Made by a program: the position numbers and the translations under genes. This document shows, piece after piece, positions 7,632 through 44,199 of a stretch of 60,048 nucleotides of DNA (position 1 is the stretch's first letter; each line of letters opens with the position of its first letter). Source of the stretch: an uncultured Bacteroidales bacterium (GTDB lineage: Bacteria; Bacteroidota; Bacteroidia; Bacteroidales; Paludibacteraceae); contig CACYZT010000005.1 of the NCBI GenBank assembly GCA_902778935.1, forward strand, positions 85,932 through 145,979, written 5' to 3'. Below the pieces are notes generated by a model. The model was not told where the DNA came from. It saw nothing but the letters and a program-made list of their open reading frames with translations, and ran no database searches.

Positions 7632-8347
7632 ATAGTGTTTGCGTAACAACATATAACGGCGAGCGGTTCATAGAAGCGCAGTTACGCTCGATTCTGTCAC
7701 AGATTGCACCGGATGACGAGGTCATCGTTTCTGATGACGGTTCGATGGACAACACCCTCAAAATCGTCGATTTCATCGGGGATAAACGCATCCGTGTCCG
7801 GCATAGTAATGCACATTATTTCAAAGATAATTTCATTGAAGCAATGCAGGAAGCAAAAGGTGATATTATATTCCTTAGCGACCAAGACGATGTATGGCTA
7901 CCCGGAAAATATGAGCGATGCTTACAGGAATTGAGAGATGTGGATCTCGTATGTACCAATAGCCAAATGACGGATGGAGAATTGAATATTATCGAACCGA
8001 ATTTCTTCTCCGTTTACCATTCGGGGCCGGGAGTACTAAAGAACGCGATGAATAATACCTATTATGGCTCCTGTATGGCTTTTCGGCGGACGGTTTTAGA
8101 AGCGGCTCTTCCGATGCCTCCGACACGGGAGATAGGTCACGATATATGGTTAGGATTAGTAGCCGAAATGACTGGTAAAGTGCGTTTTATCGATACGCCC
8201 TATTTGCTTTATCGCCGTCATGAAGATACGAAAACAAGCACCAAGGGGTTGCTGAATCGCAGTAAACGGCCGTTGTGGTTAAAAATATGGAGCCGTGCAG
8301 TCGTGCTTTATTATGTATGTAAATTCAAAATCAAACATGGAAAATAA
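7628..8347 (+). CDS. Family 2 glycosyltransferase
   Basis: A 239-aa paralogue of the preceding enzyme: TTYNGERFI, SDDGSMDNT and LSDQDDVW occupy the same positions, and HDIWLGLVAEM matches the HDAWVALI region of the neighbour. The start at 7628 overlaps the previous stop by 4 bp (ATGA); an earlier ATG in frame would extend deep into the previous gene and lacks family similarity. It probably adds a second sugar of the same repeat unit. Confidence 0.86.
   Translation: MNSVCVTTYNGERFIEAQLRSILSQIAPDDEVIVSDDGSMDNTLKIVDFIGDKRIRVRHSNAHYFKDNFIEAMQEAKGDIIFLSDQDDVWLPGKYERCLQELRDVDLVCTNSQMTDGELNIIEPNFFSVYHSGPGVLKNAMNNTYYGSCMAFRRTVLEAALPMPPTREIGHDIWLGLVAEMTGKVRFIDTPYLLYRRHEDTKTSTKGLLNRSKRPLWLKIWSRAVVLYYVCKFKIKHGK
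7649..7671 (+). repeat. 23-bp exact repeat (copy 2)
   Basis: Second copy of the block at 6822-6844, in the same frame, encoding part of TTYNGERF. Confidence 0.85.
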
Positions 8348-9098
8348 CAATTTAGTATCTATCATCACTCCGCTCTATAACACTGAGCGATTTGTTGGAC
8401 AGACTATCGAGAGTGTGCTGGCGCAGACATACACGGAGTGGGAGATGATTGTGGTCAACGATGGCAGCAAGGACAACGGACCGGATATCGTCCGCCAATA
8501 TGCAGCCAAAGACAAACGCATCAAGCTCCTTGAGCAACCCAACAGCGGTTGTGCTTCCGCGCGTAATCACGGTATCCGTGAAGCCAAAGGACGCTATTTC
8601 TGCTTCCTTGATTCCGATGACTATTGGGATCCGGAATTTCTGAAAGAACAACTGCATTTCATGGCAGAGAAAAAGGCGGCTATTGTCACATGCTCCATTC
8701 GACGAGTGGATGAAAACGGCGTTGCTATATTGAGTCCGCAGATTGTGCCGCAACGCATGACATACTATGACATTCTCAAGAGTTGCAATTTACCGTGCCT
8801 GGCTACCGTTATTGATTCCGGCCGTCTTCATGATATTCGTTTTCGTGAGGAACTGCGCAACTTACGTGATGACTACGCCCTATGGCTTTCGCTTATGAAG
8901 CAGACAGACTACGCTTATGGCAACCAGCAGGTTCTGGCCAACTACCGCATCTCATCCGCTCAGGTAACAGGTAACAAGCGGAAAGTGATTATTCCGCAAT
9001 TCATGGTAAACTATAAGGTGGAGAAACTGGGTTTTTGCCGCAGTCTTTATTATCTACTCCATTGGGCGTGGAACGGATATAAGAAATACCACGAATAA
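8337..9098 (+). CDS. Family 2 glycosyltransferase
   Basis: A 253-aa GT-A enzyme. SIITPLYNTERFV, VVNDGSKDNGPD, SGCASARNHG and FLDSDDYWDPEF are the standard motifs of bacterial GT2 proteins; the SDD motif binds the metal-nucleotide. The ATG at 8337 lies inside the end of the previous gene (11-bp overlap). It belongs to a different GT2 subgroup from the two genes before it. Confidence 0.88.
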   Translation: MENNNLVSIITPLYNTERFVGQTIESVLAQTYTEWEMIVVNDGSKDNGPDIVRQYAAKDKRIKLLEQPNSGCASARNHGIREAKGRYFCFLDSDDYWDPEFLKEQLHFMAEKKAAIVTCSIRRVDENGVAILSPQIVPQRMTYYDILKSCNLPCLATVIDSGRLHDIRFREELRNLRDDYALWLSLMKQTDYAYGNQQVLANYRISSAQVTGNKRKVIIPQFMVNYKVEKLGFCRSLYYLLHWAWNGYKKYHE

Positions 9099-35495: not shown

Positions 35496-36498
35496 AATCT
35501 TTATCATACTTCTGCATGAACCCGCGGTACAGAGCGCAGATACGCCGTATTTCCTCCCATGCATCTTCGTTCAACTTCGTTCCTACCACTTCCACCACGC
35601 GTCCGGCGGCTATAGTGCCTATCTCGGCACAACGACGGATATCAAACCCGTCGGAGAGCGCGTGCAGAAAACCTCCCGCGAAATAGTCACCCGCTCCCGT
35701 GGAATCGGTACAACTGGTCGTGATGGCGCCTATATGATGACGTTTGCTGCCCTGTTGTACATACGAACCGTTCTTACCCACTTTGACAACCGCTATGTCG
35801 CATTGCTCGGCTATCATCTGAACGGACTCTTCAGGATTAAGATGGGTATAGGCAAACGACTCATCCTCGTTGGCAAACACAATATCGACATACTGCTTGA
35901 CAAGCGCTTTGAGGAACGCATGGTTCTCATTGACCACGTTGTACGATGCCAGATCAAGCGACACCATACAACCTGCCTCTTTCGCAAGACGTATCGATTT
36001 CTCCAATAGGTCGTGGTTCTGAACCAGATAGCCTTCGATATGGAAGATGTCAAAGCCGTTGAACGCATCTTTCTGGATATCATCGGCGCATAACTCAGCC
36101 GCAGCGCCTAAGTAAGTAGCGAAAGTGCGCTCGCCGTCGGGAGTAACCAGCACTATCGAAAAACCGGACATCGACGACTGTGAGAGAAGCAGAATAGGCT
36201 TCACACCATTCTTAATCATGTCCTCGCGGTAGAAATCGCCTACTTCATCGTTGCCGATTTTACCGATAAAGGCTGATTTGCCGCCCAAAGAAGCGATACA
36301 GTTAATCGTATTCGATGCCGAACCACCCGCAACCATTCGTTTGCGAACCGACAGAAAACGATATTGAATCTGTTCCGCTTGCTCTTTGGAGATAAGATTC
36401 ATACTTCCCTTCGGAAATCCGAGCTCGCGCAAGTCATCCTCGCTCACCTGCAGAAGAATGTCCGTAAGGGCGTTACCTAAACCTAAAATTTTCTTCAT
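35494..36498 (-). CDS. PfkB-family carbohydrate/nucleoside kinase
   Basis: A 334-aa ribokinase-fold enzyme, closest in look to bacterial adenosine kinase-like proteins. GLGNALTDIL opens it; GGSASNTINCIASLGG is PfkB signature 1 and DSTGAGDYFAGGFL signature 2, with catalytic Asp in GAGD. Substrate not certain (adenosine, ribose or fructose-type sugars are possible). The stop is a TAG inside the repeat array; the promoter is divergent from tRNA-Asn. Confidence 0.9.
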   Translation of the reverse strand: MKKILGLGNALTDILLQVSEDDLRELGFPKGSMNLISKEQAEQIQYRFLSVRKRMVAGGSASNTINCIASLGGKSAFIGKIGNDEVGDFYREDMIKNGVKPILLLSQSSMSGFSIVLVTPDGERTFATYLGAAAELCADDIQKDAFNGFDIFHIEGYLVQNHDLLEKSIRLAKEAGCMVSLDLASYNVVNENHAFLKALVKQYVDIVFANEDESFAYTHLNPEESVQMIAEQCDIAVVKVGKNGSYVQQGSKRHHIGAITTSCTDSTGAGDYFAGGFLHALSDGFDIRRCAEIGTIAAGRVVEVVGTKLNEDAWEEIRRICALYRGFMQKYDKD

Positions 36499-36546
36499 TT
36501 TTTATCTTTTTTTGCCCAAAATGGGGTGAATTATCAAAAAACTTTG

Positions 36547-36577
36547 CAAAGATACGAATTTTTTTTCAAAAAAACTT
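36547..36577 (-). promoter_or_regulatory. PfkB-kinase promoter (weak match)
   Basis: Minus-strand -7 box TATCTTTG (36547-36554). No proper TTG at -33; only a T/A-rich tract. Overlaps the -33 end of the divergent tRNA-Asn promoter, so the two may interfere. Confidence 0.55.
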
Positions 36578-36606
36578 GCGTATTTAAAAAAAAAGCAGTA
36601 CTTTTG
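36576..36606 (+). promoter_or_regulatory. tRNA-Asn promoter
   Basis: TTG at 36576, nine-A spacer tract, -7 box TACTTTTG (36599-36606). The initially transcribed bases CACCCGCTTTT are the same as at tRNA-Met. Confidence 0.78.
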
Positions 36607-36652
36607 CACCCGCTTTTGAAAATGAAACGCAAAAGTGAGTAAAAAAACAGTT

Positions 36653-36726
36653 GCTTCCTTAGCTCAGTCGGTTAGAGCATCTGACTGTTAATCAGGGGGT
36701 CCAAGGTTCAAGTCCTTGAGGGAGCG
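36653..36726 (+). tRNA. tRNA-Asn (GTT)
   Basis: Acceptor GCTTCCT/AGGGAGC, D stem GCTC/GAGC, anticodon stem TCTGA/TCAGG with loop CTGTTAA (anticodon GTT), T stem CAAGG/CCTTG with loop TTCAAGT, discriminator G; CCA not encoded. It stands at the left edge of the accessory stretch. Confidence 0.95.
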
Positions 36727-36728
36727 CG

Positions 36729-36764
36729 AGAGTGATGACGCAAAAAGTCATCACTCTTTCTTTT
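36729..36764 (+). terminator. tRNA-Asn terminator
   Basis: AGAGTGATGAC and GTCATCACTCT make an 11-bp perfect stem with a GCAAAAA loop, followed by TTCTTTT. Confidence 0.85.
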
Positions 36765-36793
36765 AATAAAAAAATAAAAAAAAACGCGCGCGC

Positions 36794-36824
36794 TTGCATA
36801 TATGAAAAAAAAGTTGTAATTTTG
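36794..36824 (+). promoter_or_regulatory. Promoter of the TGA-interrupted small gene
   Basis: TTGCATATATGAAA (36794-36807) and -7 box TAATTTTG (36817-36824), expected start about 36832, 14 nt before the ATG. The promoter is intact although the frame behind it is interrupted. Confidence 0.72.
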
Positions 36825-36845
36825 CACGATTTTCTAAACTCTGCC

Positions 36846-37064
36846 ATGAAAGACCTGCTTTTCACCTTCGATGAGGATGCGTGACGGACGCGCTACAAGT
36901 GGGCTATCGGAGTAAGCAATTTCCAGACATGCCGTTTCTATGATTTTGCTTCGGTAGCAGATATGCAAGCCATCGAGCCGCTCAATCAATCAGATACCGG
37001 CTTCCGCGATTTCGCCGACCCCAACTACCTCCGCCGAATCATCGCCATGTTCCCTAACGTGTAA
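36846..37064 (+). pseudogene. Small gene of unknown family with an in-frame TGA at codon 13
   Basis: From ATG 36846, the frame reads MKDLLFTFDEDA, then TGA (36882-36884), then 59 more sense codons in the same frame (RTRYKWAIGVSNFQTC, ending IIAMFPNV) to TAA at 37062. Without the TGA it would encode about 72 residues. The promoter and spacing are normal. Most likely a nonsense-mutated or truncated relic; recoding is the less likely reading. I do not recognise the protein, and no restart codon with good context follows closely. Confidence 0.5.
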
Positions 37065-37089
37065 GAATACTTTTTAATTCGATATTTTC

Positions 37090-37120
37090 TTGCATATCTC
37101 AGAAAAAAGTAGTACCTTTG
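37090..37120 (+). promoter_or_regulatory. XRE regulator promoter
   Basis: TTGCATATCTCAGA (37090-37103) with -7 box TACCTTTG (37113-37120). Only 17 nt separate the box from the ATG, so the leader is about 10 nt. Confidence 0.78.
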
Positions 37121-37137
37121 CAGCGTGATTTCGATGT

Positions 37138-37770
37138 ATGGATGTCAAGATTAACATAGTTAACGAGAATATCGTTCAAGTATTCACGATGGAGGACGAG
37201 CATGTTTGCTCGTTTGAGTTGCCTTGTGAAAGCGGCAAACTCACCTATTCGTATATGGCAACGCGGATAGAACATCTGTTTTATGATGATATCCAATCTG
37301 CGGATGTTTTGAATGCTATTTCATATGTAGTAAAGCGTTGTAAGGGCGAGGAAAGATTCGTGCCGCGCCTTTATTTTGAGGAAACGGAAGAGCGGCAAAA
37401 CATCGGTTCGCTTATTCGCGAAGTACGCATGAAACGCGGAGTCTCATCTAAAGATGTTGCGATGTTGGTTGGTCTCGCAGCCCCCAACTACTCACGTATT
37501 GAGAGCGGTCAGACTTCGCCCACTTACAAGACACTCGTGCGTATTTTTGACGTGCTGGATATTCACATGGATGTTCAACCGGCAGATCTTGCTCCGATAA
37601 ATGTAGAAGAGCGCGCGCAAGAGGAACGCAATGCAGCATGGGAAGTAGAACAAAAACGTATCATAGCGCAAGTTCGTAAAGAACATCCCAAAATGCTTCT
37701 ATGGTCAGTTGAGAAAATAAGAGAGACCAAGTATTATAGAGAACTCGTAAAGGAGTATAAGGGCAATTAG
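37138..37770 (+). CDS. XRE-family regulator with unknown N-terminal domain
   Basis: A 210-aa protein. Residues 89-142 form a helix-turn-helix of the Cro/C1 type (IGSLIREVRMKRGVSSKDVA, then PNYSRIESGQTSPTYKTLVR). Residues 1-85 form a separate small domain with alternating beta/alpha pattern that I do not recognise. The C-terminal 60 residues are charged and helical. The stop codon lies within the first copy of a 37-bp repeat. Likely the local regulator of the following genes; the repeat is a plausible operator, but nothing in the sequence proves it. Confidence 0.85.
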   Translation: MDVKINIVNENIVQVFTMEDEHVCSFELPCESGKLTYSYMATRIEHLFYDDIQSADVLNAISYVVKRCKGEERFVPRLYFEETEERQNIGSLIREVRMKRGVSSKDVAMLVGLAAPNYSRIESGQTSPTYKTLVRIFDVLDIHMDVQPADLAPINVEERAQEERNAAWEVEQKRIIAQVRKEHPKMLLWSVEKIRETKYYRELVKEYKGN

Positions 37771-37801
37771 CAAAAACGATAACAACTCTCGTTCGATATT
37801 A
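37765..37801 (+). repeat. 37-bp direct repeat, copy 1 (before nuclease gene)
   Basis: Starts AATTAGCAAAAACGATAAC and ends TTCGATATTA. It matches 38769-38805 at 35 of 37 positions (differences at repeat positions 20 and 27). It ends 28 nt before the nuclease ATG at 37830. Confidence 0.9.
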
Positions 37802-37829
37802 TACCATATAACACTAAAATTATATCATT

Positions 37830-38681
37830 ATGGAAACATTTCAAAAAAAAGTAAAAGACCATTTGGTAATTTACGCCAAAAATCAAAACGATTTAAAAAA
37901 TATTCTTGGTGGCATATGGAGAAAGAATAAATATGACCATATACTTATCAATAAAGAAAAGTATAAATACAACCTATTACCTGATTATCGTAAAAGTCTT
38001 GATGAGTACATTCGCAATCGCAAAAATGGTATCAAGTTGCACTCCGATGCCCATCATCTTAACTCATCGCAAATAATGTGTATGAACTTCTTTTATCCAT
38101 TAATTTGCGAGAATAAACTCTCTTATATACTAAATTTCATTAATCCCAACGGGCAATGGGGAGATGTTAAGCATGCTGCTTTTGAGAAAATTTCTGATAT
38201 TGACGGCAAGCAAAGGGGCGCTACTAATTTTGACTTCTTTGTAGAAACTTCGAATGGCTATAAAATCTATTTTGAAATCAAATACACTGAAAATGAGTTT
38301 GGCAGGGCTAAAGCAGATAAAAGCCATATTGCTAAATGGGACAAGATGTACAAGTCTTTAATTATTGATTCTCCTATACTTGAAAGTAATATAATTGATC
38401 AAAAGTATTTCTTTAAAAACTATCAGATAATTCGGAATTCCATTCATGTACAAAATTCTAATAAGGATTATTCCATCTTTTTAGTACCAGAGGCTACAGA
38501 TTATGGCAAAACAACACTATATAACAAAGCAAAGACGGTTATAGAAGAAGTTGTTAAAAAAGAAAGCGCAAACCACGTTCAAGTGCTCAGCTGGGAGAAA
38601 ATAATAAATGTTGTCGAGAACGACCCTCAACTTAAAGGCTATTACGCTGAATTTAAGAAAAAATACTTAGATTTCGTATAA
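37830..38681 (+). CDS. PD-(D/E)XK nuclease-like protein (putative restriction endonuclease, PGN_0703-like)
   Basis: A 283-aa protein. D135 in TNFDFFVET and E149-x-K151 in YFEIKYTE make the PD-(D/E)XK triad, with E119 upstream; HLNSSQIMCMNFFYPL near 77-91 resembles the conserved block of PGN_0703-type putative restriction endonucleases. The gene is clearly richer in A+T than its neighbours, with Lys/Asn/Ile-rich protein. No methyltransferase is adjacent. Bracketed by two 37-bp direct repeats and closed by its own terminator, it looks like a later-inserted cassette. A defence role is inferred from family and context only. Confidence 0.75.
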   Translation: METFQKKVKDHLVIYAKNQNDLKNILGGIWRKNKYDHILINKEKYKYNLLPDYRKSLDEYIRNRKNGIKLHSDAHHLNSSQIMCMNFFYPLICENKLSYILNFINPNGQWGDVKHAAFEKISDIDGKQRGATNFDFFVETSNGYKIYFEIKYTENEFGRAKADKSHIAKWDKMYKSLIIDSPILESNIIDQKYFFKNYQIIRNSIHVQNSNKDYSIFLVPEATDYGKTTLYNKAKTVIEEVVKKESANHVQVLSWEKIINVVENDPQLKGYYAEFKKKYLDFV

Positions 38682-38717
38682 AACAGCATTTTTTCTAACA
38701 GTCTTATTTCTCACTAT

Positions 38718-38752
38718 AAGCCCTGTATCTCATTGAATACAAGGCTTTTTTC
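38718..38752 (+). terminator. Terminator after the nuclease gene
   Basis: AGCC and GGCT plus TGTAT and ATACA pair (one C.A mismatch) around CTCATTGA, followed by TTTTTTC. Confidence 0.8.
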
Positions 38753-38768
38753 TTTATGTCCATATCCA

Positions 38769-38805
38769 AATTAGCAAAAACGATAACGACTCTCCTTCGA
38801 TATTA
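38769..38805 (+). repeat. 37-bp direct repeat, copy 2 (before the 91-aa gene)
   Basis: Second copy of the block at 37765-37801, two substitutions. It too ends exactly 28 nt before an ATG (38834). No TAnnTTTG box lies between the terminator and this gene. Confidence 0.9.
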
Positions 38806-38833
38806 AGGAATTGTAACAATAATTTTAGCTAAT

Positions 38834-39109
38834 ATGGAAAAAGAAATCAAAATTCAATTCGCGCTCCCGAATTTAGAGGCGATGCAAAGCTTTCTCGTAA
38901 CTCCTCCTGCTGACTGGCAAGACAAGATCTGCGACAAGCTGCAAGAGATTGTTATGGACTATCTGAACTCTAACCACTTGGCAATCAAGGCGCAATTGGC
39001 TGACTTTGCCGTGTGCGAAAGTGGCTGGCAGTATGCCGACAAGCAAGCCGAAATGCAAGTGGCATCCATCGTAAGTAACTATTTTGACATCTATTATGCG
39101 CAAGATTAA
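38834..39109 (+). CDS. Hypothetical protein, 91 aa
   Basis: Acidic small protein, helical by appearance, with no signal peptide or membrane segment (LPNLEAMQSFLVTPPADW; CESGWQYADKQAEMQ). I recognise no family. It overlaps the next gene by 14 bp and is likely cotranslated with it; conserved spacing from the 37-bp repeat suggests it was the original gene downstream of the XRE regulator. Confidence 0.7.
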   Translation: MEKEIKIQFALPNLEAMQSFLVTPPADWQDKICDKLQEIVMDYLNSNHLAIKAQLADFAVCESGWQYADKQAEMQVASIVSNYFDIYYAQD

Positions 39110-39779
39110 ACTGACATCTATTTCAAAGAACCCCAAAAATCGATTAACGAAAATGAGTATGAGACCAAATCTTTTAGACTTCACGGCTTCCGGGCAAGCC
39201 GTGATTGACATGCCAAACTTCAGCGAAATCTCCTTCTTGGAGAATTTCGGCTTTAGCCCGATTGAGAGTGTAGAGCATGAAATCAAAAATGCCGATTCGC
39301 CTGAGCGCGCCGCTTTTCTGCAACACTATGTAGATGTTTTCAAAAAGACATTTACCGAACTACCTAAATCATATATTGGAGAGGATGAAGATGAGGAGCC
39401 GTTTGACTTTCATTCTATGAGCAGGACAAGTATTCGTTTTAGCAATGTGCGCTTGCTTCATACCACAGCGTGGTATATGATGGGACATCTTGACTCCGAA
39501 ATCAATGCCGTTAAGCGACACCTTAACGAATTGGAATGTCTCGGAGTTGTAGTAGATAATTTGGAAGAGTTTATTCATCTCATCCGAATTTCCAAAGACC
39601 CTAAAGAGGCATGTGCCCGCTTTCAAAAGCGTTTAGAGATAGGCTACGTAAAAGCCCAATATCTTCTCAATCTACCGCTTGCTAAAGTTACCTCATTCGA
39701 TGCAGTAAAATTAGCCATCGAGAAAGAGGACTTTCAGAAACGTTTAGCATTTTTAGGACAATTAAATCAACCAAAATAA
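39096..39779 (+). CDS. Unknown protein with type IIA topoisomerase A-subunit-like coiled-coil/C-gate segment
   Basis: A 227-aa protein from ATG 39096 (an earlier TTG at 39084 is possible). Residues 1-117 are unrecognised, with an acidic stretch GEDEDEEPFDF. Residues about 118-222 run as GyrA/ParC do around the C-gate: a helix with LDSEINAVKRHLNEL, then NLEEFIHLIRISKDPKEA (compare the GyrA IDEVIxLIRxS pattern), a QAQAILDMRL-like piece (KAQYLLNLPLAKVTSF), and a final helix. No catalytic Tyr, WHD or DNA gate is present. The relationship is my reading of the pattern and is not verified. It abuts the polymerase gene with no gap. Confidence 0.6.
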   Translation: MRKIKLTSISKNPKNRLTKMSMRPNLLDFTASGQAVIDMPNFSEISFLENFGFSPIESVEHEIKNADSPERAAFLQHYVDVFKKTFTELPKSYIGEDEDEEPFDFHSMSRTSIRFSNVRLLHTTAWYMMGHLDSEINAVKRHLNELECLGVVVDNLEEFIHLIRISKDPKEACARFQKRLEIGYVKAQYLLNLPLAKVTSFDAVKLAIEKEDFQKRLAFLGQLNQPK

Positions 39780-42230
39780 ATGACTAATTATATGAATTTC
39801 ACACACTTACATGTACATTCCCATTTTTCTCGTATTGATGGAATGGCAAGAGTCCGCGACATCGTGGATAAATGTATCGCAACCGGCATGAACGCGGTTG
39901 CTCTTACCGATCATGGCAATATGTGCGGCATCAAAGAGCTGCTTGATTATTGCAAGTTAATTAACGAAGAACGCAAAATGTCCGGCAAAAAGCTTTTCAT
40001 TCCTATTGTAGGACTCGAGGCATATTGTGCGCGTCGTGGACGGCATTTTATGTCCGATGAAATCGACCGCGGAGGATGGCATATTATCTTGCTTGCAAAA
40101 AACAAAATAGGCTATCAGAACCTCTGCCGTCTTGTTTCTGCAAGCAATCAGGAAGATGCTTTCTTCGTTGTTCCTCGTATTGATCACGAACTGTTGGAGC
40201 AATATCACGAAGGCCTCATCTGTTGCTCAGCCTGTATTGGAGGCGAACTGCCGCAGAAAGTGCTTGCGGGCTTGCAGTCTGGTGATTTGAGCGAAGCACG
40301 CAAAACGGTTGAGTGGTTCAAAAACTTGTTTGGTGATGACTATTATATCGAATTGCAACGTCACGAAACACGCAGACCTGGCGCTAATCGGGAAACATTC
40401 AAGTTGCAATCTATGATTAATCCCGTGCTTATTGACTTAGCATATGAGTATGGAGTTAAGATTATTTGCTCCAACGACAGCCATTTCCTCAACAAAGATG
40501 AAGCTGACGCACAAGATTGCTGGATGTGTATCCGCACCAATAAAACGGTGGATGACAAAGACCGTATTCGCTTTTCCAAACAAGAATGGCTTAAAACGCC
40601 GGAAGAAATGGCTGAAATCTTTAGTGATCTTCCTGAAGCACTCGCAAATACGCAAGAAATAGTCGATAAAATCGAACTATATGACATCGAACATGCACCT
40701 ATTTTTCCTAAGTTAGAAATTTCTTCATCTCCCCAAGAGTACTTGCGTCAACAAGTATTACAGGGAGGTAAAGAGCGTTATGGGGAAGAATTCGTCCATT
40801 CTCATGCATTCACGCAACGTGCCGAAACCGAACTGGAAGCTTTCTGCGCTAAAGAAGAGACTATCACCTATCTCCTCATCTTAGCAGACATGGTGAATGC
40901 AGCAAGTAAAATGGGAATCATGGTTGGTCCAGGCCGTAGTTCAGCAGCAGGCTCACTCGTGTTATATTGCCTCAAAATAACCGACATTGACCCACTGAAA
41001 TATGGTCTGCTTTTTGAGCGTTTCTACACTGACAATGAAGCATTGCCGGACATAGATATAGATGTGGAAGATGGTGAACGCGAGAATTTAATTGACTACT
41101 TGTCGCAGAAGTATGGAGAATCACATGTTGCACAAATTTGTAATTGGCGCTGTACAAAAGGCGACTCTTGGAAACTCATTCATATAGGTCGAGCACTGCA
41201 AATTCCAGAGGAACGTATAAATGTGCTAATGAAAGACGACCATCAAATTTTAGAAACTAATGAGCGTAAAGCCATTAAATATCTACAACAATTAACAGGA
41301 ATCGGTATTGATGTTAGTTACACATGTGGAGTAGCTATTTGTGGAGAGGAATTTCCGAACTTACTTCCTTTGTGTAATGTCAAAGATATAAACTCCAATG
41401 ACACACGTATAATTGCTACCGGATATGGTTTTAAAGCCTTAGAGGATATAGGTGTCGTCAGGTTGGACATCCTTGGACTTTACGCATTAACTACCATTAA
41501 TGAATGTCTCAGAAAGATAAAACAGGTACATGGTATAGAACTCAACATGAATGCTATTCCTATGGATGACAAGGCAACACTTCAGATTTTTCAAGAAGGT
41601 CAAACTGCGGGTATTTTTCAGTTTGAGTCAAGAGGTGTGCAGAATGTGTTACGGGAATTGCACCCCGATAATTTTGAAGAATTGGTTGCTGTTAATACCA
41701 TGTATCGTCCTGGACCTGAAACCTACATTCAGCCCTTCATCAATCGCAAACGTGGCATAGAGCCAATCTCCTATGAACTCCCTGTGATGGAGAAGTTCCT
41801 GAAGGAAACAAAAGGATTCTTCCTATACCAAGAACAACTTATGCAAATGTGTCAAGAAGTAGCTGGTTTTACTCCGAAGGAAAGTGATCAATTCCGAAAA
41901 GATTCAGGGCGGTTAGGCAAATCTCCACTCACCGATATTTGGAAACGCAAGTTTATCGACGGAGGTATAGCAAACGGCTATGACGAGAAGGCATTGTCAA
42001 ATATCTGGACTACATGGGAGAAATCGCGTCTTTACGCTTATAACAAATCCCACGTCCTTTGCTATACATGGCTTGCATACCAAATGGCGTATCTCAAAGC
42101 ACATTACTTGGACGAATTCATACTTGCTTCCATTCTTGCAAAACGTGACTATGAATTATCAGGTCTTAGAAATCTCTTACAATCCTATAGAAACATTGAA
42201 AAAAATCAAAGGTTTGCGGAAATTATATAA
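39780..42230 (+). CDS. Short DnaE-like DNA polymerase III alpha subunit lacking C-terminal domains
   Basis: An 816-aa C-family polymerase against about 1,150-1,250 aa for replicative DnaE. PHP domain about 5-260 keeps likely metal ligands: H9, H11, H13, D44-H45 (TDHGN), E80, H101 and D233/H235 (NDSH). The palm has GPGRSSAAGSL (383-392), the catalytic Asp cluster PDIDIDVEDGER (423-434) and D563 in RLDILGL. It reaches the fingers (NKSHVLCYTWLAYQMAYLKA) and stops about 40 residues later, missing the helix-hairpin-helix, clamp-binding motif, OB fold and tau-binding domain. Third gene of the trio; likely a mobile or repair polymerase rather than the replicase. Confidence 0.88.
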   Translation: MTNYMNFTHLHVHSHFSRIDGMARVRDIVDKCIATGMNAVALTDHGNMCGIKELLDYCKLINEERKMSGKKLFIPIVGLEAYCARRGRHFMSDEIDRGGWHIILLAKNKIGYQNLCRLVSASNQEDAFFVVPRIDHELLEQYHEGLICCSACIGGELPQKVLAGLQSGDLSEARKTVEWFKNLFGDDYYIELQRHETRRPGANRETFKLQSMINPVLIDLAYEYGVKIICSNDSHFLNKDEADAQDCWMCIRTNKTVDDKDRIRFSKQEWLKTPEEMAEIFSDLPEALANTQEIVDKIELYDIEHAPIFPKLEISSSPQEYLRQQVLQGGKERYGEEFVHSHAFTQRAETELEAFCAKEETITYLLILADMVNAASKMGIMVGPGRSSAAGSLVLYCLKITDIDPLKYGLLFERFYTDNEALPDIDIDVEDGERENLIDYLSQKYGESHVAQICNWRCTKGDSWKLIHIGRALQIPEERINVLMKDDHQILETNERKAIKYLQQLTGIGIDVSYTCGVAICGEEFPNLLPLCNVKDINSNDTRIIATGYGFKALEDIGVVRLDILGLYALTTINECLRKIKQVHGIELNMNAIPMDDKATLQIFQEGQTAGIFQFESRGVQNVLRELHPDNFEELVAVNTMYRPGPETYIQPFINRKRGIEPISYELPVMEKFLKETKGFFLYQEQLMQMCQEVAGFTPKESDQFRKDSGRLGKSPLTDIWKRKFIDGGIANGYDEKALSNIWTTWEKSRLYAYNKSHVLCYTWLAYQMAYLKAHYLDEFILASILAKRDYELSGLRNLLQSYRNIEKNQRFAEII

Positions 42231-42257
42231 AAAGTCAACGTTTTACTGTATGCAAAT

Positions 42258-42288
42258 TTGCATATCTCAAAAATTTGTTGTACCTTTG
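42258..42288 (+). promoter_or_regulatory. Promoter of a short terminated transcript
   Basis: TTGCATATCTCAAA (42258-42271) and -7 box TACCTTTG (42281-42288). A separate palindrome ATGCAAATTTGCAT overlaps its upstream end (42250-42263). Confidence 0.78.
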
Positions 42289-42294
42289 CACCCG

Positions 42295-42366
42295 AAATGG
42301 ACAAGCAGTCCAAAAACACCATCACAGAAATAACGGAATTACCTCGAATTTTCATCGAGGTTTTTT
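42295..42366 (+). ncRNA. Candidate ~72-nt short RNA or attenuated leader
   Basis: Between the promoter at 42258-42288 and a strong terminator at 42341-42366 only about 72 nt are transcribed. A 32-codon frame starting at ATG 42297 (MDKQSKNTIT...) runs through the terminator to 42395, so a leaderless peptide or an attenuator for the gene at 42524 are alternatives to a small RNA. Confidence 0.4.
42341..42366 (+). terminator. Terminator/attenuator hairpin
   Basis: ACCTCGA (42341-42347) pairs with TCGAGGT (42355-42361), followed by five T and C. Confidence 0.8.
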
Positions 42367-42385
42367 CGGACCCATCTCGGTATTC

Positions 42386-42440
42386 GAGTGGGTGATTAGT
42401 GGGTGAATAGTGGGTCGTTAGTGGGTGGTTAGGCTTACGT
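42386..42440. repeat. Degenerate 11-nt tandem array (4-5 units)
   Basis: GAGTGGGTGAT, TAGTGGGTGAA, TAGTGGGTCGT, TAGTGGGTGGT and the half-matching TAGGCTTACGT. Lies between the short transcript and the 167-aa gene. Confidence 0.8.
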
Positions 42441-42523
42441 CAGACTGACTTCTTGCCAAGGACCTGCCAGAATGGCAGAAATAAATAAATCTATAAATAA
42501 TACTACAAAAACTATGCCAAACT

Positions 42524-43027
42524 ATGGCTAAAACTGAACTTTCCTCCGCTTTTGAAAATATTCGCGGAAAATTGAACAAAAAAGAACGAATTGTACATCG
42601 CCAAAAGAAGTATCGAGCTGAGACGGGAACTGTCATTTCGACAGCTTCACAAGAAGCTTATGCTATCCTTAACCCACGTGATTACAAGAAAAATCCGCCT
42701 AAAGGAGCCGAACTCCGTAATATTCAGTCGTTCGCCGATGCCAGTCGCGTCACAACACTCATCATTCGAGCCGGCAAATATACCCGGGAAGAATTGGCAT
42801 CTATGACGGATTCCGAGCGCCAACAAGCACTTGAATACCGCGATCAATTCGAGCATTTCAAAGCACGCTTTATGGCGCAACTGAAGAAACCCGACCAGCA
42901 AGCACCCATCTTGCCTAAAACAGACCCGCAGTTCAATCCTAATTCTTCCAAAGTACAGAGACGTACCTATCGAACGCTCAACACGTTCATTCGTGCCATG
43001 GTCCTACAAGCAATCAAATTGGCATAA
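42524..43027 (+). CDS. Conserved-looking hypothetical protein, 167 aa
   Basis: A basic, mostly helical soluble protein (KLNKKERIVHRQKKYR near the N-terminus; AKYTREEL-like central helices; RRTYRTLNTFIRAMVLQAIK at the C-terminus). No signal peptide, no membrane segment, and no family I can name. The nearest promoter is at 42258, with a terminator between, so expression may need read-through. Confidence 0.65.
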   Translation: MAKTELSSAFENIRGKLNKKERIVHRQKKYRAETGTVISTASQEAYAILNPRDYKKNPPKGAELRNIQSFADASRVTTLIIRAGKYTREELASMTDSERQQALEYRDQFEHFKARFMAQLKKPDQQAPILPKTDPQFNPNSSKVQRRTYRTLNTFIRAMVLQAIKLA

Positions 43028-43050
43028 ATGCAAAAAAAATGCGCAAAAAC

Positions 43051-43081
43051 TTGCATATATGCAAAAATTGTTGTACCTTTG
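43051..43081 (+). promoter_or_regulatory. mreB operon promoter
   Basis: Perfect TTGCATATATGCAA (43051-43064), -7 box TACCTTTG (43074-43081); the mRNA leader is about 90 nt. Confidence 0.82.
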
Positions 43082-43179
43082 TGCGATATTTCCGGAATGC
43101 GTGCGTTTCGGGATTGTTTCACATCGGTTAGACTACAGAGCGAACAACGCAAATTGCAAATAATTAATTAGATACACAT

Positions 43180-44199
43180 ATGGGACTTTTTTCTTTTACA
43201 CAGGAGATTGCCATTGACCTCGGAACGGCGAACACCATCATCATGTGCGATGATAAGATTGTGGTGGATGAGCCTTCCGTTGTGGCTATTTCCATGGCAG
43301 ACAACAAAATGGTGGCCGTCGGTCGTAAAGCGCAGCAAATGATCGGTAAGGGCGGCAGTATGATTCGTACCGTTCGTCCGTTGCGCGATGGTGTCATCGC
43401 CGATTTCTATGCCTGCGAGATGATGATTCGCGGCATGATTAAGATGATTCCGAAGCAAACGCGTCTATTCACTCCGTCCATCCGCATGGTCGTTTGTATT
43501 CCTTCCGGTTCTACCGAGGTCGAGATTCGTGCCGTGCGTGACAGCTCCGAACATGCCGGCGGACGCGACATCTATATGATCTACGAGCCTATGGCGGCGG
43601 CTATCGGTATCGGCCTGGACGTAGAGAGTCCCGAGGGCTGTATGATTGTCGATATCGGTGGTGGTACGACGGAGATTGCCGTCATTTCTCTCGGTGGAAT
43701 CGTTAGCAATAAGTCTATCAAGATTGCCGGTGACGATTTCAACCAGGATATCATCGAGTATATGGGCCGTATGCACAACCTCCGTATCGATGAGCCTACG
43801 GCGGAGCGTATCAAGATTCAGGTCGGTTCGGCGCTGCCCGAACTGGAGGACGCGCCGGAAGACTTCGTCGTTGTTGGTCCTAACAAAGTGACCGCTCTGC
43901 CGATGTCCGTTCCTGTGAGCTACCAGGAGATTGCACACTGCCTCGAGAAGAGCGTCAGCAAGATTGAGGGTGCTATCCTGCAGGCTCTCGAGTCCACGCC
44001 GCCTGAGTTGTACTCCGATATCGTGAAACGCGGTATCTACCTCACCGGTGGTGGCGCGCTGCTCCACGGTCTGGCTCGCCGTCTGACGGACAAGATTACC
44101 ATTCCGTTCCACGTGGCGGACGACCCGCTTCACTCTGTAGCTCGCGGTACCGGCGTAGCGCTGAAGAATGTGAATAACTTCGGCTTCCTCCTGCGCTAA
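43180..44199 (+). CDS. mreB: Rod-shape-determining actin homologue MreB
   Basis: A 339-aa bacterial actin. DLGTANTIIMCDD is phosphate-1, DIGGGTTEIAVISLGG phosphate-2, and GGGALLHGLARRL the adenosine motif; VCIPSGSTEVEIRAV and YEPMAAAIG are family blocks. N-terminal MGLFSFTQE resembles the membrane-binding amphipathic start. It heads the shape operon mreB-mreC-mreD-pbp2-rodA, whose products form the elongasome. Confidence 0.98.
   Translation: MGLFSFTQEIAIDLGTANTIIMCDDKIVVDEPSVVAISMADNKMVAVGRKAQQMIGKGGSMIRTVRPLRDGVIADFYACEMMIRGMIKMIPKQTRLFTPSIRMVVCIPSGSTEVEIRAVRDSSEHAGGRDIYMIYEPMAAAIGIGLDVESPEGCMIVDIGGGTTEIAVISLGGIVSNKSIKIAGDDFNQDIIEYMGRMHNLRIDEPTAERIKIQVGSALPELEDAPEDFVVVGPNKVTALPMSVPVSYQEIAHCLEKSVSKIEGAILQALESTPPELYSDIVKRGIYLTGGGALLHGLARRLTDKITIPFHVADDPLHSVARGTGVALKNVNNFGFLLR

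What the first reader, a model, noticed from the sequence alone, without database searches (positions are those of the whole stretch)
38834..42230. Contiguous trio: 91-aa protein, topoisomerase-C-gate-like protein and a tailless DnaE polymerase
Three genes with a 14-bp overlap and a 0-bp gap encode an unknown small protein, a 227-aa protein whose second half follows the GyrA/ParC coiled-coil/C-gate pattern, and an 816-aa C-family polymerase with intact PHP and palm residues but no clamp- or tau-binding domains. A stand-alone C-gate-like module coupled to a DnaE that cannot use the standard clamp contacts is unlike any replication or mutasis cassette I know (imuA/imuB/dnaE2 lacks such a partner). 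Placed between a tRNA and the shape operon, beside a nuclease cassette, it could be a defence, repair or element-replication module.
Basis: partly seen in the sequence, partly recalled or inferred. Interest (0 to 1): 0.75.

Follow-up and report, generated by a model that had tools for sequence, protein, structure and literature searches.

The report
Decayed replication proteins beside DNA-cutting enzymes
A gene trio in a rumen bacterium carries worn-down copies of the cell's own DNA-copying and DNA-untwisting proteins, wired by a shared control sequence to a DNA-cutting enzyme, and it looks like part of an undescribed, still unproven, defence-type system.

Summary
The trio is real: p91, a 227-aa protein (p231) ending in a GyrA/ParC C-gate-like segment, and an 816-aa tailless DnaE. 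It does not look like a replication or repair cassette. It is one operon of a modular locus: an HTH regulator, PD-(D/E)XK nucleases, and, across relatives, proteins decayed from DnaE, GyrA, DnaB and sigma-70 region 2. A 37-bp element lies 60 bp upstream of both the nuclease and the trio. Across 178 genomes of the genus the element (17 sites) occurs in exactly the 8 genomes that carry the regulator.

In relatives the DnaE parts lose the PHP domain, some lose the third catalytic Asp, some are fused to the nuclease, while the nuclease motif stays intact in 17 of 18 checked. DnaE816 keeps 75.5% of 102 universal DnaE positions; 48 held-out genuine DnaEs keep 93.3-100%. Selection is purifying in 17 of 25 gene pairs.

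Best mechanism (0.4): host-like modules bait phage takeover proteins and control the nuclease. No defence function is shown. Rivals: a targeting scaffold, nuclease restraint. My searches found no parallel.

The parts
37086..37126 (+). Promoter-like stretch before the regulator gene, of the type also found before p167 and mreB
   Evidence: Repeat family D1, 5 copies in 36400-43400. That it is the Bacteroidales -33/-7 promoter type is recalled.
37138..37770 (+). HTH regulator (HTH210), HTH_3 domain at residues 93-145
   Evidence: Pfam HTH_3 3e-11; present in 8 of 178 genus genomes, exactly those with the 37-bp element. That it binds the element is inferred.
37765..37801 (+). 37-bp element, copy 1; its core (37770) lies 60 bp before the nuclease ATG
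   Evidence: 95% identical to copy 2; 0 matches in 100 shuffles; genus-wide scan; distances recounted.
37830..38681 (+). REase-ARP PD-(D/E)XK nuclease, 283 aa
   Evidence: PF22558 E=5.1e-42; D...E-x-K motif present.
38769..38805 (+). 37-bp element, copy 2; its core (38774) lies 60 bp before p91
38834..39109 (+). p91, small protein of unknown origin
   Evidence: No Pfam family at E<=1. AlphaFold2 pLDDT 81.5, no viral or PDB fold match at E<=0.001. dN/dS 0.04-0.08 in three pairs.
39096..39779 (+). p231 (227 aa): N-terminal tag of the MRKI.ITN type, unknown middle, GyrA/ParC C-gate-like C-terminus
   Evidence: GyrA/ParC; tag; family alignment.
39519..39764 (+). Codons of the GyrA C-gate-like segment (residues 142-223 of the 227-aa protein)
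   Evidence: hmmsearch with 22 GyrAs, 36.7 bits, no gaps.
39780..42230 (+). DnaE816: PHP + NTPase/palm + fingers of DnaE, no clamp/tau region; three aligned palm Asp present (426, 428, 563)
   Evidence: keeps 77 of 102 universal positions; groups with the pseudo-DnaEs of relatives, SH-aLRT 93 (98 with the lone L158).

Best explanation
The trio is the replication-derived operon of a modular, HTH-regulated, PD-(D/E)XK-nuclease locus restricted, as far as searched, to one genus of Bacteroidales. SHOWN by sequence: a shared 37-bp element before the nuclease and the trio; decay of replication-enzyme features alongside kept nuclease motifs; fusion of nuclease and pseudo-DnaE in relatives; exchange among DnaE-, GyrA-, DnaB- and sigma-70-r2-derived parts; purifying selection in most measurable pairs. 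INFERRED: the modules no longer serve replication but bind. Most likely they are bait or sensors: phage proteins made to seize or block the host's replication (and perhaps transcription) machinery bind these copies, which are physically or operonically tied to the nuclease; binding then frees or activates the nuclease, which cuts DNA and stops the infection. The HTH protein probably controls both operons through the 37-bp element.
For: Regulator and element occur in the same 8 of 178 genomes, 17 sites, 0 for the reversed control pattern. 13 of the 17 sites lie 58-61 bp before an ATG: of nucleases, of the p91 operon and, in three loci, of the sigma-r2 mini-gene; the other 4 lie at 45-85 bp. Nuclease fused to decayed DnaE in 7 loci (L030, L082, L083, L093, L094, L095, L097; Pfam for four of these proteins, likeness for the rest), in one of them also to DnaB parts. 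Third palm Asp replaced (N, N, T, Q) in 4 of 4 short DnaEs checked; ExK motif kept in 17 of 18 N-type nucleases and 6 of 6 REase-ARPs checked. DnaE816 keeps 75.5% of 102 universal positions against 93.3-100% for 48 held-out genuine DnaEs. No methyltransferase family over its Pfam cut-off among the cassette proteins scanned. Patchy presence, 8 of 178.
Against: No defence function, phage target or binding is shown. PADLOC gave nothing for the trio or the nuclease, only weak HTH hits to the regulator. Likeness to the host proteins is modest (DnaE816 48.7% to its own DnaE; p231 GyrA part 23-33% to GyrAs), weak for a decoy that must look like its target. DnaE816 keeps all three aligned palm Asp, and its own dN/dS could not be measured (saturated; pN/pS 0.31), so catalysis is not excluded in the window itself. 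Most dN/dS values are low, not the diversifying pattern often expected in an arms race. Sigma-r2 could be a regulator rather than bait, and the window has none.
Confidence: 0.4

Rival explanations
1. Targeting scaffold: the DnaE-, GyrA- and DnaB-derived parts bind DNA structures or assemble dimers and deliver the nuclease to replication intermediates or to a phage fork; they are not bait.
For: Nuclease and pseudo-DnaE are fused in seven loci; palm-NTPase and finger parts are the ones retained when PHP is lost. The C-gate and DnaB N-terminal domains are dimerisation parts (recalled).
Against: Universal polymerase positions in the palm are lost (G387S, K561R in DnaE816; third Asp in short forms). 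It is unclear how host DNA would be spared without a methyltransferase.
Confidence: 0.25
2. Toxin-restraint module: p91, p231 and DnaE816 hold the nuclease inactive (antitoxin-like) and only their loss or titration matters; likeness to replication proteins is history, not function.
For: The same control element before nuclease and trio; p91 is the most constrained part measured, dN/dS 0.04-0.08.
Against: p231 is absent in L083 and L096, p91 in L030, L083, L093 and L094, although nucleases are present; antitoxins are seldom 816 aa and multi-domain (recalled).
Confidence: 0.15
3. A defence-associated or translesion polymerase: DnaE816 still makes DNA (perhaps untemplated, like defence reverse transcriptases) and p231/p91 are its accessories.
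For: PHP motifs and all three aligned palm Asp are present in DnaE816; a full PHP-DnaE relative beside a nuclease exists in L084.
Against: Related short forms lack PHP, about 110 palm/thumb residues and (4 of 4 checked) the third Asp, yet dN/dS of their pairs is 0.12-0.32; 25 of 102 universal positions are lost in DnaE816; none of the six window proteins scanned is ImuA or ImuB.
Confidence: 0.1
4. Remnant of a phage or mobile element's replication module.
For: DnaE is common in phages (1361 of 50,697 phage records match).
Against: No relative of p231 was confirmed in the viral-contig scan; four phage records match only its C-gate part, E 4e-5 to 7e-2; no phage or plasmid record covers 80% of the nuclease-DnaE fusion; DnaE816 groups with the chromosomal pseudo-DnaEs, not with the two phage DnaEs included; no integrase among the six window proteins scanned.
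Confidence: 0.05

Closest known systems
DnaE (C-family polymerase III alpha) and DnaE2/ImuB mutasome
   Same: PHP, NTPase/palm and finger domains; aligned palm Asp kept in the window copy.
   Different: No clamp/tau region; loses 25 of 102 universal positions; no ImuA/ImuB among the six window proteins scanned; several relatives look like pseudo-enzymes.
GyrA/ParC coiled-coil and C-gate
   Same: Gapless 82-residue match; GyrA/ParC are the best PDB hits.
   Different: Rest of PF00521 not matched; 23-33% identity; the first 130 or so residues match nothing at E<=1 in Pfam.
REase-ARP / PDDEXK_13 nucleases (PF22558, PF20796)
   Same: Nuclease domain and ExK motif.
   Different: Coupled by a control element or fusion to decayed replication proteins; no methyltransferase over cut-off among proteins scanned.
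Guard/effector-triggered anti-phage systems (PARIS, Panoptes, bNACHT25 with DnaJ; passages of PMC12409349, abstract of PMC12169576)
   Same: Idea: phage action on a host part or a decoy frees an effector.
   Different: None of these, in what I read, uses decayed copies of DnaE, GyrA or DnaB; no function is shown here.
Split sigma factor SigO-RsoA of Bacillus subtilis (one passage of PMC10141391; further details recalled)
   Same: The 90-97 aa sigma-70 region-2 protein in relatives, beside an HTH protein and a dedicated promoter-like element.
   Different: The window lacks the region-2 protein; HTH210 has an HTH_3 domain and no sigma region-4 match.

Membership tests
Type IIA topoisomerase subunit A (GyrA/ParC) | C-gate/coiled-coil segment | tested here: met
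   by sequence only; Pfam score below its curated cut-off in the window copy (27.4 vs 31), above it in L030 (34.9 vs 31). Fold not shown.
Type IIA topoisomerase subunit A (GyrA/ParC) | Breakage-reunion (WHD/tyrosine) domain | tested here: not met
   Only profile positions 326-416 of 432 of PF00521 are matched.
Functional DnaE polymerase | Universal DnaE positions conserved | tested here: not met
   77 of 102 kept; leave-one-out range of 48 genuine DnaE1/DnaE2 is 93.3-100%.
Functional DnaE polymerase | Three catalytic Asp of the palm | tested here: met
   D426, D428, D563 in DnaE816; third replaced in the 4 short DnaEs checked. Which residues are catalytic is recalled.
Functional DnaE polymerase | Clamp- and tau-binding C-terminal region | tested here: not met
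   No C-terminal domain by Pfam; alignment to own DnaE stops at 885 of a 1311-residue frame.
ImuA/ImuB/DnaE2 mutasome | DnaE2-type polymerase | tested here: not met
   DnaE816 lies with DnaE1, apart from 5 DnaE2 rows (100* branch, quick tree).
PD-(D/E)XK REase-ARP nuclease (neighbour) | Family match and D...ExK motif | tested here: met
   PF22558 5.1e-42; motif. Activity not tested.
Decoy/guard anti-phage system | Module binds a phage protein and thereby triggers an effector | not testable with these tools
   Needs binding and infection assays.
Known anti-phage system (PADLOC) | Match to a catalogued system | tested here: not met
   10 proteins scanned, 5 of the window and 5 of relatives: no hit for trio or nuclease; HTH hits only for the regulator, PDC-S11 3.5e-4 for an L035 protein.
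Split sigma factor | Region-2 protein plus region-4 partner acting at a dedicated promoter | tested here: inconclusive
   Sigma70_r2 E 1.1e-9 to 2.3e-8 in five relatives, element in front of them; no region-4 match in HTH210; no region-2 gene in the window (rest of the own genome not searched).

The most novel reading that the evidence does not exclude
A bacterial integrated-decoy immune locus: decayed copies of the host's DNA polymerase, gyrase, replicative helicase and sigma factor are kept as bait for phage takeover proteins and are tied, by fusion or by a shared regulator, to exchangeable PD-(D/E)XK nucleases.
Probability: 0.3. Interest if true: 0.93.

Novelty: categorically new. Interest (0 to 1): 0.76.

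Why it matters
If the modules are bait, bacteria would use the same trick as plant immune receptors with integrated decoys, with the essential replication machinery as the guarded set. That would point to phage proteins that attack DnaE, GyrA, DnaB and sigma factor in gut Bacteroidales. Even if the mechanism is otherwise, a regulated locus that preserves decayed polymerase and gyrase pieces beside active-looking nucleases had no parallel in the library and paper searches I made; these do not cover most subscription journals.

Tried and rejected
p231 as chance or as an FtsK gamma domain: PF09397 matches the 45-aa segment before DnaE in L084, L085 and L087 (best 3.6e-5; 7.9e-4 for the L084 segment alone) and weakly p231 of L029, L030 and L093 (0.0023-0.03), but GyrA/ParC scores better for p231 in each protein scanned; whether the L084-L087 segment comes from GyrA or FtsK is open.

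Structure of p231: pLDDT 41, not used for a fold search. p91: usable model (pLDDT 81.5, though the five models range from 42 to 81.5), but no match with E<=0.001 in viral or PDB folds.

p167 (42524-43027) as part of the system: rejected. It is a multi-copy family (9 matches in the own genome), and its 825-bp unit sits in another setting in G003. This search was meant as an empty-site check for the cassette and could not serve as one, because the unit itself is dispersed. No empty site was shown.

N-terminal tag as a genome-wide targeting signal: rejected. In 18 genomes the 12 strong rows (E<=1.4e-8) lie in these loci; weaker rows include one further nuclease-like gene of G081 (3.8e-4), p231 of G195 (0.005) and short matches that look like chance.

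The universal-position test was first made on columns that included the test controls; it was redone with each genuine DnaE held out. Four order rows were left out of the DnaE tree (L139, L143, L144, L147) to shorten it, and the tree is a quick one; L158 has a long branch.

Wide search: the L085-type nuclease was found in 1 of 393 order genomes (G255, without replication modules near it), p231 in 1 of 393 (the own genome).

Full report
Observation. The three genes are as described: p91 38834-39109; a 227-aa protein 39096-39779 overlapping it by 14 bp (called p231 here after its longer TTG form); DnaE816 39780-42230 with no gap. The GyrA/ParC likeness of p231 residues 142-223 rests on Pfam, NCBIfam, a profile of 22 GyrAs from genus and order and PDB sequences (25 of 27 rows at E<=1). 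The AlphaFold2 model was too poor to test the fold. DnaE816 has PHP, NTPase and finger domains and nothing after them by Pfam.

It is one operon of a larger locus. Upstream lie an HTH_3 regulator (37138-37770) and a REase-ARP PD-(D/E)XK nuclease (37830-38681, E=5.1e-42). A 37-bp direct repeat, 95% identical, lies before the nuclease and before p91; its core begins 60 bp before each ATG; none of 100 shuffles of the window gives a match even with 3 mismatches. A scan of 178 genomes of the genus with the element (up to 3 mismatches) found 17 sites in 8 genomes and none with the reversed control pattern. They are the same 8 genomes that hold the regulator. 13 of the 17 sites lie 58-61 bp before an ATG; the exceptions are the L096 DUF6946 gene (45 or 63 bp) and the sigma-r2 genes of L029, L092 and L096 (53-85 bp). 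Of 19 loci that I scanned for the 14-base core, the 8 with the regulator have it and the 11 without do not (five further 2-mismatch matches elsewhere in these loci look like chance).

What the relatives show. Regulator loci: L029, L030, L083, L092, L093, L094, L096 and the window. Counted over these 8: nuclease 8; DnaE-derived domain 8; GyrA-like p231 6 (absent in L083 and L096, though the L096 genome has one on another contig, L095); p91 4; sigma-70 region-2 mini-protein 7 (one broken, in L092; one partial and fused, in L083; absent in the window); DnaB-derived parts 3; a further small protein (p104) 7, five of them by matches over only 58-65 of 104 residues, absent in the window. In L029, L030, L092, L093, L094 and L096 the sigma-r2 gene also has the element in front. 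Loci where this regulator was not seen carry the same kinds of parts: L097 (and L095, a 3.7-kb contig of another genome) has nuclease-pseudo-DnaE, p231 and a short DnaE; L082 has a nuclease-pseudo-DnaE; L084 has a nuclease beside a full PHP-DnaE preceded by a 45-aa GyrA/FtsK-gamma-like segment; L085 and L086 have a nuclease beside that segment joined to a PHP-less DnaE, and L087 has the latter with a shorter nuclease frame. Their regulator is a WYL protein where seen (Pfam for L031, the same locus as L097; by eye for L082 and L085-L087). Among 178 genus genomes p231 is in 8, and the nuclease half of the L031 fusion is in at least 15 by my reading of the rows (other rows are host DnaE; the weakest rows were not listed). 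In order samples of 393 genomes p231 was only in the own genome and the nuclease in one other.

Decay and selection. The short DnaEs lack PHP and about 110 palm/thumb residues, and 4 of 4 checked have N, Q or T for the third palm Asp; L085-L087 and DnaE816 keep it. In DnaE816, 77 of 102 positions shared by 43 DnaE1 and 5 DnaE2 sequences remain; each genuine sequence, held out, keeps 93.3-100%, median 99.5%. The nine DnaEs of these loci form one group in the tree, SH-aLRT 93, or 98 with the lone L158. Yet the genes are kept: of 25 pairs, 17 have dN/dS 0.04-0.32; three have 0.50-0.75 (two near-identical pairs and the nuclease-DnaE pair L097/L095, also little diverged); five are saturated, among them the only pair for DnaE816 (pN/pS 0.31). 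The nuclease motif is kept in 17 of 18 N-type proteins checked (lost in L088; partial frames such as those of L087 and L091 were not checked) and in 6 of 6 REase-ARPs. So the cutting part stays active-looking while the replication parts drift from catalysis and are still selected: they most likely bind.

Mechanism. I commit to sensing: host-like parts that phage takeover proteins would bind, tied to a nuclease (0.4). In favour: fusion of bait and effector, several essential targets in one kind of locus, patchy presence, co-regulation, no methyltransferase over its cut-off among the proteins scanned. Against: likeness to the host proteins is modest (48.7% for DnaE816 to its own DnaE; 23-33% for the GyrA part), no fast evolution, no phage partner, and the sigma-r2 protein could instead be half of a split sigma factor reading the 37-bp element. 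A targeting scaffold (0.25) and nuclease restraint (0.15) remain serious. That phages attack gyrase, DnaB, polymerase III and sigma factors is recalled knowledge; of my searches on it, one search listed one paper holding all six terms (PMC6316719, listing only) and one search listed none that I took up.

Literature. PMC12409349: passages only; PMC12169576: outline and abstract; PMC10141391: one passage; all others: search listings. Searches for the family name REase-ARP (0 papers), decoy systems and degenerate DnaE, nuclease fusions or related terms listed nothing that looked like this locus. The library lacks most subscription papers, so absence from print is not shown.

Verdict. Observation confirmed; interpretation partly supported. 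The rating categorically new concerns the anatomy; function is unproven.

Noticed in passing
window 42257-43081: An approximately 825-bp unit holding the 167-aa gene p167 is 92% identical in G003 in another setting; p167 is a multi-copy family (9 matches in the own genome; 48 of 61 genus genomes searched have at least one).
   Followed up: partly
window 42387-42430: Tandem 11-bp repeats (three overlapping 22-nt copies) between DnaE816 and p167.
   Followed up: no
window 36847-37066: Relic reading frame with an in-frame stop, behind its own promoter-like repeat, between tRNA-Asn and the regulator.
   Followed up: no
L159 (G039:C46), 822-aa ORF: A lone, degenerate, tailless PHP-DnaE in another Bacteroidales family (80 of 102 universal positions), after a short ORF that looks like an AbiEi C-terminus (by eye, no call); it joins the pseudo-DnaE group on a long branch.
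   Followed up: partly
L161 (G255) 7799-8650: A stand-alone relative of the tagged nucleases without replication modules near it, close to an ATPase-like gene (by eye): perhaps the ancestral state.
   Followed up: partly
L085, L086 upstream of the nuclease; L030 13329-13892; L035 4033-5133: A palindrome-like GTGCCACAAGTTGGCAC before the nuclease gene of two loci with a WYL-type regulator; an ArdA anti-restriction gene beside the L030 locus and a Fic gene beside the L035 locus.
   Followed up: no
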